Both the position numbers and the translations under genes were made by a program. Positions 12,653-14,187 of a stretch of DNA of 64,000 nt are shown one piece after another. How positions within the stretch are numbered: the stretch's first letter is position 1; each line of letters begins with the position of its first letter. The notes below the pieces were generated by a model. The model had not been told where the DNA came from. It saw only the letters and a list, made by a program, of their open reading frames with translations, and did no database searches. Source of the stretch: Sulfurihydrogenibium sp. YO3AOP1 (GTDB lineage Bacteria > Aquificota > Aquificia > Aquificales > Hydrogenothermaceae); the NCBI RefSeq assembly GCF_000020325.1, contig NC_010730.1, positions 1 to 64,000 of the forward strand, written 5' to 3'.

Positions 12653-12875
12653 TGGTTATCCTGAAAGCGAAAGACGAATCTCTTGTTTAAATGTTAAAAA
12701 ATCCTATATACGAAACTATTCTAAAATTTTTATAACTTTAACTTTTCCTGTTATCCTGAGGACGAAGTCCGAAGGACCTCTTTTTTGATTTTTCGACTTG
12801 AAAAGAAAAACATGAGATTCTTCGCTTCGCTCAGAATGACAAATAAGGTAATTAACATGCTTTTACTTTCTCTGT
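12653..12875. repeat. Dispersed repeat block, left part, interrupted by the IS110 element
   Basis: The gap 12605-12875 has no gene. It holds GTTATCCTGAGGACGAAG with GTCCGAAGGACCTC (about 12751-12780), then AGATTCTTCGCTTCGCTCAG and AATGAC (about 12813-12839), then CAAATAAGGTAATTAACATG running into TCTCTGTCATC. This last part is nearly identical to the intact block at 15772-15821; the IS110 element separates it from its continuation at 14142. An apparent reading frame through 12785-13048 is only translated repeat. Confidence 0.8.
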
Positions 12876-12956
12876 CATCGTATATTAAATATACTAAAAA
12901 TTTTTTAAACTATAAGAGAATAAGTTTTATAATAATTATAGACATGGGAGAAAAAA

Positions 12957-13102
12957 AGAAGGACAGATCAAGTTTCTGTCATTGGTCTTTTAAGACCGAT
13001 CAGGATGTTTTAGACTGTCCTTCCTCTACTTCCTACAACCTGAATTAGAACATTAGGCTTTTAAGCCTGTATTTAACTACGATGATAGGTTATCAGGAAG
13101 TT
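12957..13102 (+). ncRNA. Predicted bridge RNA of the IS110 element
   Basis: Two consecutive hairpins with internal loops precede the recombinase gene. Hairpin 1: AAGGACAG (12959-12966) pairs with CTGTCCTT (13015-13022), with an inner stem GGTCTT/AAGACC (12984-12997). Its left loop has TCTGTCAT (12975-12982), identical to the left target 12871-12878. Its right loop has TCAGGATG (13000-13007), complementary to the right target CATCCTGA (14142-14149). Hairpin 2: ACTTCCT (13028-13034) pairs with AGGAAGT (13095-13101), AACCT with AGGTT, with an inner stem AGGCTT/AAGCCT (13055-13068). Its loops carry TAGAACAT (13046-13053), equal to the right end 14137-14144, and TACGATG (13078-13084), complementary to the left end CATCGTA. 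This is the target/donor loop layout described for IS621. Confidence 0.88.
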
Positions 13103-13140
13103 TCTTTCATGTCAAGTATTTTATGAAAGGAGGTACTATT

Positions 13141-14127
13141 ATGAACAGCTACAAAATAGTCATAGGAATTGATGTATCTAAAAACTCATTCACTGCTACA
13201 GTTTTGTATGATAACAAGAAAGAAAATTTTGAAGTTAAATCTGACCCGGTAGAGTTTGAAATGAAAGTAAAGCCTTACCTTAAGAAGTTTAAAAAGTCAG
13301 ATATGCTTATCATAATGGAACATACGGGAGTTTACCATTTAAAGCTTGCTAATTATCTGTATGAAAATGGTTATAAAGTAGCAGTAGTAAATCCATTTTC
13401 AATAAAGAAATTTATGGAAGCTAAAATGACAAGAGTTAAAACAGATAAAGCTGATTCATTCTTTATTGCAGAATATGGAAGAACGTTTTTCGATGGAGAG
13501 CTTTATAAACCAAAATCAGATGTAGAAAAAGAAATAGAAGTAAAACTAAAGATATTGGAAGACCTACAACAGCAGCTTACAATGCTAAGAAACAAAAGAG
13601 AATCATTAACCTATGTACCAATGAAAAAATTGAAAGAGAATTTAGAATATTACGATGAGCTAATTAGAAAAATAGAAAAAAACATAAAAGAACTTGAGAA
13701 AGAGATAAAAGAATTGTCTAAGAAGAATTATCAAGAGGAATACAAACTTTTAAAAAGTATACCTGGTATAAGTGATAGGACTATAGGAATGATAATATCA
13801 GTATATGGAAATTTTGAAAGATTTAAGAGTGTAAAAGATATATCGAGTTTTATAGGAATTAATCCAAGCCCATATGAAAGTGCAGCATGTGTAAAGAAAA
13901 GTGTCCGGATAAAAAAGATGGGAAATCCATATGCAAGGAAAATATTATACATGGCAGCATTATCAGCAATAAGGTTTAACAAATACTGCAGAGAATTATA
14001 CGAAAGATTAGTAAGTAAAGGTAAGGCTAAAAAATTAGCATTAGTGGCTGTAGCACATAAGTTATTAAGGCAAGCATATGGTGTATTAAAAAGCAGAAGA
14101 CCATTTGATGAAAATTTTTGTACTTGA
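13141..14127 (+). CDS. IS110-family recombinase (DEDD plus serine transposase)
   Basis: A bridge-RNA-guided recombinase. The 328 residues have an N-terminal RuvC-like DEDD domain: D11 (IGIDVSKN), E60 (MEHTG), D102 and D105 (KTDKADS). A coiled-coil stretch at about 125-200 follows. The C-terminal transposase domain has LLKSIPGIS (203-211), SFIGINPSPYESAA (236-249) with S247 as the likely catalytic serine, and GNPYARKILYMAAL. An upstream in-frame ATG exists at 13123, but AAAGGAGG (13126-13133) sits 7 bases before the ATG at 13141, so I choose the latter. The frame is intact, and the element could be active. Confidence 0.93.
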   Translation: MNSYKIVIGIDVSKNSFTATVLYDNKKENFEVKSDPVEFEMKVKPYLKKFKKSDMLIIMEHTGVYHLKLANYLYENGYKVAVVNPFSIKKFMEAKMTRVKTDKADSFFIAEYGRTFFDGELYKPKSDVEKEIEVKLKILEDLQQQLTMLRNKRESLTYVPMKKLKENLEYYDELIRKIEKNIKELEKEIKELSKKNYQEEYKLLKSIPGISDRTIGMIISVYGNFERFKSVKDISSFIGINPSPYESAACVKKSVRIKKMGNPYARKILYMAALSAIRFNKYCRELYERLVSKGKAKKLALVAVAHKLLRQAYGVLKSRRPFDENFCT

Positions 14128-14141
14128 CATTTAACATAGAA

Positions 14142-14187
14142 CATCCTGAGGCCGTAAGGCCGAAGGATCTCCTTTTTAAATTCTATA
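14142..14187. repeat. Dispersed repeat block, right part beyond the IS110 element
   Basis: CATCCTGAGGCCGTAAGGCC followed by GAAGGATCTCCTTTTTAAA continues the repeat split by the IS110 insertion. The same sequence occurs intact at 15816-15856. Confidence 0.85.

What the first reader, a model, noticed from the sequence alone, without database searches (positions are those of the whole stretch)
12957..13102. A bridge RNA whose four guides can be read against its own insertion site
Seen in sequence: two stem-loops before the IS110 recombinase each have an internal loop with two short segments. In loop 1, TCTGTCAT (12975-12982) equals the left target at 12871-12878 and TCAGGATG (13000-13007) is the reverse complement of the right target CATCCTGA at 14142-14149. 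In loop 2, TAGAACAT (13046-13053) equals the element's right end at 14137-14144 and TACGATG (13078-13084) is the reverse complement of CATCGTA at the left end (12876-12882). Known: IS621 bridge RNAs use exactly such target and donor loops, with both guides covering the core. The core here would be inside CAT, not the CT of IS621. This is a second-lineage, thermophile example whose programme is decoded by eye.
Basis: partly seen in the sequence, partly recalled or inferred. Interest (0 to 1): 0.93.

Follow-up and report, generated by a model that had tools for sequence, protein, structure and literature searches.

The report
Thermophile jumping gene with guide RNA
A jumping gene in a hot-spring bacterium carries an RNA whose two loops read both the element's own ends and a repeat scattered some 270 times through the chromosome, and every one of about 30 copies in that genome sits in this repeat, which makes it a very clear natural example of the recently discovered bridge-RNA recombinases rather than a new kind of system.

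Summary
A 1,266-bp IS110-group element (12877-14142; recombinase 13141-14127, all IS621 catalytic residues conserved) has upstream of its gene an RNA with two loops. Their four short segments match the target and donor junctions in the order and strands known for IS621 bridge RNAs (29 matched positions; at most 23 in 20,000 RNA shuffles and 22 in 20,000 random junction pairs). This is one end of an intergenic, BIME-like repeat with about 270 free copies. Element and repeat occur together in three of seven genomes of the genus and are missing together from four. An orthologous empty site shows the junction. Aligning the ends with IS621 sets the core as AT and reveals the same promoter rebuilt across the circle junction (TTGACA-17-TATATT); both handshake guides are complementary to the opposite DNA. 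Not shown: transcription, compensatory base changes, or activity. Outermost guide bases vary between copies without tracking their flanks, so '8-base' matches are really 6-7. A strong new member of a known kind.

The parts
12877..14142 (+). IS110-group element, 1,266 bp counting one AT core; the other AT core is 14143-14144
   Evidence: about 30 full or partial copies in the genome end at the same points; empty orthologous site
12871..12876 (+). left target (LT) TCTGTC of the host repeat
   Evidence: (T/C/G)GTC precedes AT at all 26 left ends in this genome
12877..12878 (+). left copy of the core dinucleotide AT
   Evidence: position-for-position alignment with the IS621 CT core
12879..12886 (+). 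right donor (RD) CGTATATT; contains the -10 hexamer TATATT (12881-12886) of the junction promoter
12904..12933 (+). possible internal promoter TTTAAA-18-TATAAT, which would start the RNA near 12940 (weak: 9 promoter-like hits against 7.1 expected in the region)
12941..13111 (+). predicted bridge RNA; closing helix GACAUGGGAGAAA / UUUCUUUCAUGUC encloses both loops
   Evidence: fold z = -5.15; consensus fold of 11 copies, only one-sided pair changes
12957..13025 (+). target-binding loop (TBL) stem-loop
12975..12982 (+). left target guide; invariant part TGTCAT 12977-12982
13000..13006 (+). right target guide UCAGGAU (AGGAU or AGAAU among copies)
13007..13008 (+). TBL handshake guide GU, complementary to donor positions 7-6 (C, A) and mismatched to the target at position 6
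   Evidence: direct reading of the sequence against PMC11208158; invariant in 11 aligned copies
13029..13101 (+). donor-binding loop (DBL) stem-loop
13046..13053 (+). left donor guide; robust part AGAACAT 13047-13053
13078..13083 (+). right donor guide UACGAU
13084..13085 (+). DBL handshake guide GA, complementary to target positions 7-6 (C, T) and mismatched to the donor at position 6
   Evidence: direct reading; invariant in 11 aligned copies
13141..14127 (+). IS110 recombinase, 328 aa; D11 E60 D102 D105 S247 match IS621 D11 E60 D102 D105 S241
14124..14129 (+). -35 hexamer TTGACA of the promoter rebuilt in the circle (17-nt spacer to TATATT at the left end)
14137..14142 (+). left donor (LD) TAGAAC
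14143..14149 (+). core AT plus right target (RT) CCTGA of the host repeat
   Evidence: YCT(G/T)A follows AT at all 26 right ends in this genome

Best explanation
This is an IS110-group insertion sequence (IS621-like) that moves as a circle by bridge-RNA-guided recombination. Joining the ends in the circle rebuilds a sigma-70-type promoter that transcribes the left end. The RNA binds the recombinase: its first loop pairs with both strands of a host repeat (TGTC-AT-YCTGA) and its second with the element's own joined ends (AGAAC-AT-CGTA). The recombinase cuts after the AT core of both DNAs, and the strands are exchanged with the help of handshake guides. The programme restricts the element to one end of an intergenic palindromic repeat, a safe site outside genes. 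Shown by sequence: the guides, their fit to many independent insertions, the empty site, the junction promoter motif and the catalytic residues. Inferred from IS621: transcription, binding, cleavage and exchange.
For: IS110 family by Pfam and NCBIfam and 1.9e-37 to IS621 8wt6, with all catalytic residues and the core-reading G63 and N84 conserved. Four guides in IS621 order, far above chance. 26/26 left and 26/26 right ends in the repeat, with unrelated outer left flanks, so they are independent insertions. 221 free exact sites of the 12-mer against 0 for the reversed control. Element and repeat occur together in 3 of 7 genomes of the genus: 269, 175 and 206 free 11-mer sites against 0-2 in the four without it. 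Empty orthologous site in S. yellowstonense. Same spacing of -35, core and -10 as in IS621. Stable fold and consistent one-sided pair changes.
Against: No transcript data. No two-sided compensatory changes, because the copies are too alike. Guide variants at the C/T position of the repeat do not significantly predict the subtype occupied (Fisher p = 0.11), and outer LTG bases do not predict flanks (p = 0.17). No relative of intermediate distance was found that keeps the scaffold with a different programme.
Confidence: 0.93

Rival explanations
1. The recombinase itself recognises the palindromic repeat, as proposed earlier for REP-targeting elements, and the upstream RNA structure serves another purpose such as regulating the gene.
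For: REP-targeting elements of several families exist, and protein recognition was proposed for some (PMC1525189).
Against: It does not explain four in-register guides to both target and donor on the prescribed strands, nor the handshake bases; experiments on IS621 and on IS1111/IS110 elements show RNA guidance (PMC11208160, PMC11187229).
Confidence: 0.04
2. The copies spread by homologous recombination or duplication of repeat-flanked segments rather than by targeted insertion, so their shared site says nothing about guides.
For: The targets are repeats, some similar over 70 bp or more, present in about 270 free copies.
Against: Left flanks beyond TGTC differ completely and right flanks carry different repeat variants; the exchange points fall within CAT at the ends read; the orthologous site is empty in a congener.
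Confidence: 0.02
3. The bridge RNA is real but the register is CA or the whole CAT rather than AT.
For: CA and AT tie at 29 matched positions, since C7 is shared by target and donor.
Against: Alignment of both ends with IS621 puts AT at the place of CT, with identical distances to the -35 and -10 hexamers; the T of the core is nearly invariant and AT works in IS621 (PMC11208158, PMC11208160).
Confidence: 0.06

Closest known systems
IS621 (Escherichia coli, IS110 group; Durrant 2024 PMC11208160, Hiraizumi 2024 PMC11208158)
   Same: Recombinase domains and catalytic residues; RNA upstream of the gene; loop order target then donor; guides overlapping the core; promoter rebuilt at the right-left junction with identical spacing; insertion into extragenic palindromic repeats.
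   Different: Core AT instead of CT; longer left end (262 against 191 bp from core to ATG); contiguous RDG rather than bulged; longer right target guide (7 against 4 pairs); catalytic motif SA instead of SG in this copy; host a thermophile of another phylum.
ISCro4 recombinase (9t56)
   Same: Same size class and near full-length match, E = 4.9e-37.
   Different: A distant sequence match only; its guides and target were not compared here.
REP-targeting IS110 elements ISPpu9, ISPpu10, ISPa11, ISRm19 (PMC1525189)
   Same: All listed copies sit in an extragenic palindrome (7/7, 7/7, 6/6, 4/4 in that paper).
   Different: Other repeats and hosts; some of these are, from memory, of the IS1111 type with the RNA downstream of the gene.

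Membership tests
IS110 group (IS621 type) bridge-RNA recombinase | DEDD RuvC-like plus Transposase_20 recombinase with catalytic serine | tested here: met
   PF01548 and PF02371 above cut-off; D11, E60, D102, D105, S247
IS110 group (IS621 type) bridge-RNA recombinase | longer non-coding end upstream of the gene, short right end, no long subterminal inverted repeats | tested here: met
   262 bp from core to ATG on the left; about 15 bp from the stop codon (14127) to the right core (14143); ends seen
IS110 group (IS621 type) bridge-RNA recombinase | RNA with a target loop then a donor loop whose 5' sides match the top strand and 3' sides the bottom strand, all covering the core | tested here: met
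IS110 group (IS621 type) bridge-RNA recombinase | copies lie in sites that match the target loop | tested here: met
   26/26 left and 26/26 right ends
IS110 group (IS621 type) bridge-RNA recombinase | conserved RNA secondary structure supported by covariation | tested here: inconclusive
   stable fold z -5.15; one-sided changes only, none two-sided
[quoted passage not shown]
   TTGACA-17-TATATT with the core 13 nt after the -35 hexamer, as in IS621; activity not tested
IS110 group (IS621 type) bridge-RNA recombinase | RNA is made, binds the recombinase and directs recombination | not testable with these tools
   no RNA-seq or biochemistry available
IS1111 group (seekRNA) | RNA downstream of the gene and subterminal inverted repeats of 7-17 bp | tested here: not met
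   RNA is upstream; only about 15 bp lie between the stop codon and the right core

The most novel reading that the evidence does not exclude
The target guides are a fast-evolving part of this element: about five LTG and four to five RTG alleles occur in different combinations within three species, while the core-proximal guide bases and the donor guides stay nearly fixed. This could be natural retuning of guides, by mutation and recombination between copies, to the C-type and T-type subfamilies of one host repeat.
Probability: 0.2. Interest if true: 0.6.

Novelty: new member of a known kind. Interest (0 to 1): 0.42.

Why it matters
It is an unusually complete natural data set for one bridge-RNA programme: about 30 independent insertions in a single genome, an empty orthologous site, a natural AT core, both handshake guides readable, and a host that grows hot, so the recombinase may be heat-stable and useful as a tool. 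It also repeats, in another phylum, the IS621 strategy of aiming at extragenic palindromic repeats. It does not change the known mechanism.

Tried and rejected
Protein-only recognition and spread by homologous recombination were considered and rejected (see rivals). A test of whether the RTG allele (AGGAT or AGAAT) predicts the repeat subtype occupied gave 11:3 against 4:5, p = 0.11, and the outer LTG test gave p = 0.17, so neither is claimed. Searches for relatives of intermediate distance to test guide-end covariation failed: none outside the genus in 136 genomes of the phylum at E <= 1e-30, only S. yellowstonense in genome contigs, no viral contigs, and only about 36% identical hits in plasmids and 25-39% in phages. 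More distant IS110-like genes in the family (L063-L066) were not analysed for guides. The strict contiguous-run score does not rank IS621's own junction first; IS621 is known to have a non-canonical pair and a bulged RDG, so the score is a conservative test rather than a general detector. A RAYT-type transposase as source of the repeat was not supported: one Y1 transposase in this genome, none in the two congeners that also carry the repeat.

Full report
What is there. The window lies in a 1,838,442-base single-contig genome. Its close relatives are Sulfurihydrogenibium: genome G039 carries the same contigs as S. yellowstonense SS-5. From memory the size is that of Sulfurihydrogenibium sp. YO3AOP1. 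At 13141-14127 lies a 328-aa recombinase of the IS110 family (Pfam PF01548 and PF02371; NCBIfam 'IS110 family RNA-guided transposase'). Its solved relatives are IS621 and ISCro4 (E about 1e-37), and D11, E60, D102, D105, the catalytic serine, and the core-reading G63 and N84 of IS621 are all kept.

The observation. All four guide matches are present at the given coordinates. With a common core and fixed order they total 29 matched positions; the best of 20,000 shuffled RNAs reached 23 and the best of 20,000 random junction pairs 22. A blind search of all junction pairs near the two ends puts the true one first, with registers AT and CA tied. The RNA folds far better than shuffles (z -5.15): a closing helix around two stem-loops, each with an internal loop that holds a guide pair. 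Eleven copies share this fold with several one-sided but no two-sided pair changes, so covariation is not proof here.

The genome holds about 30 full or partial copies. All 26 readable left ends read (T/C/G)GTC before the AT and all 26 right ends YCT(G/T)A after it; 19 further ends in two congeners agree but for three irregular right ends (two one base short, one in tandem with its own end) and one TGCC left end. Outer left flanks are unrelated and right flanks carry different versions of the repeat, so the insertions are independent. The orthologous place in S. yellowstonense is an uninterrupted repeat...TATCATCCTGAGGCCG..., matching the right flank of the window element.

The target. It is one end of an intergenic, BIME-like repeat: a C-type hairpin (TGTCATCCTGAGG...CCGAAGGATCTC) often faces an inverted T-type hairpin (TGTCATTCTGAGC...GAAGAATCTC). 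The genome has 269 exact free 11-mer sites (138 C-type, 131 T-type); congeners G037 and G039, which have the element, have 175 and 206, and the four congeners without it have 0 to 2. The three carriers may be one clade, so this co-distribution is suggestive rather than independent evidence. Insertion is always in the same orientation relative to the arm, as expected since only one arm has TGTC.

Core and handshake. The exchange point lies between position 6 (T in the target, A in the donor) and position 10 (variable in the target), so inside CAT. Aligning both termini with an E. coli IS621 copy places AT where IS621 has CT, 13 nt after the -35 hexamer and 2 nt before the -10: TTGACA-17-TATATT here, TTGCAG-17-TATTAT there. 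IS621 accepts AT cores and its T is nearly invariant (PMC11208160, PMC11208158). With core AT, the two bases after the RTG (GU, 13007-13008) are complementary to the donor's CA and the two after the RDG (GA, 13084-13085) to the target's TC; each mismatches its own DNA at position 6. Four bases are few, so it is consistent rather than proof.

Variation of guides. Among copies the outer LTG (three of four columns) and the RTG (four of eight) vary most in the target half of the RNA, while TGTCAT, the core and the handshake bases do not vary. The 3' stem of the donor loop also varies, seven of fifteen columns, mainly through one or two diverged copies. The varying guide bases do not significantly predict the copy's own site.

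What is inferred. That the RNA is made, binds the protein and directs recombination rests on the shown behaviour of IS621 and relatives (PMC11208160, PMC11208158, PMC11187229). Durrant et al. surveyed thousands of IS110 elements and may well have included this one. I file it as a new member of a known kind, with high confidence in the mechanism and moderate interest.

Noticed in passing
window 12752-12841: A composite repeat (C-type hairpin and inverted T-type hairpin) lies just left of the element; such BIME-like repeats recur some 270 times in this genome and are nearly absent from four of six congeners. What spreads them is unknown.
   Followed up: partly
recombinase residues 239-259 (window about 13855-13917): The stretch around the catalytic serine is unusually polymorphic among copies: GINPSPYESAACVKKSVR, GISPGIHESGTSVKKSGW, GLNPSPYESGSSVKKSGK and mosaics. 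The window copy has SA instead of the conserved SG motif, and so do other nearly identical, recent copies.
   Followed up: partly
L093, L095, L096 (own genome about 652,400, 1,398,600 and 395,000): At least three copies (probably more, judging by other split copies) are interrupted by a Transposase_mut (IS256-type) element of about 1.3 kb, with an end reading GGGAGTTAAAATAATGTTGTGTCTAAAT.
   Followed up: partly
G037:C42 (L080): A right end in tandem with a second copy of its own last bases (...CATATAACATAGAACATCCTGAGG), suggesting an aberrant event at an earlier end.
   Followed up: no
G000:C1:1433445-1433807: A single Y1 (IS200/REP-type) transposase in this genome, absent from the congeners that share the repeat.
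   Followed up: no
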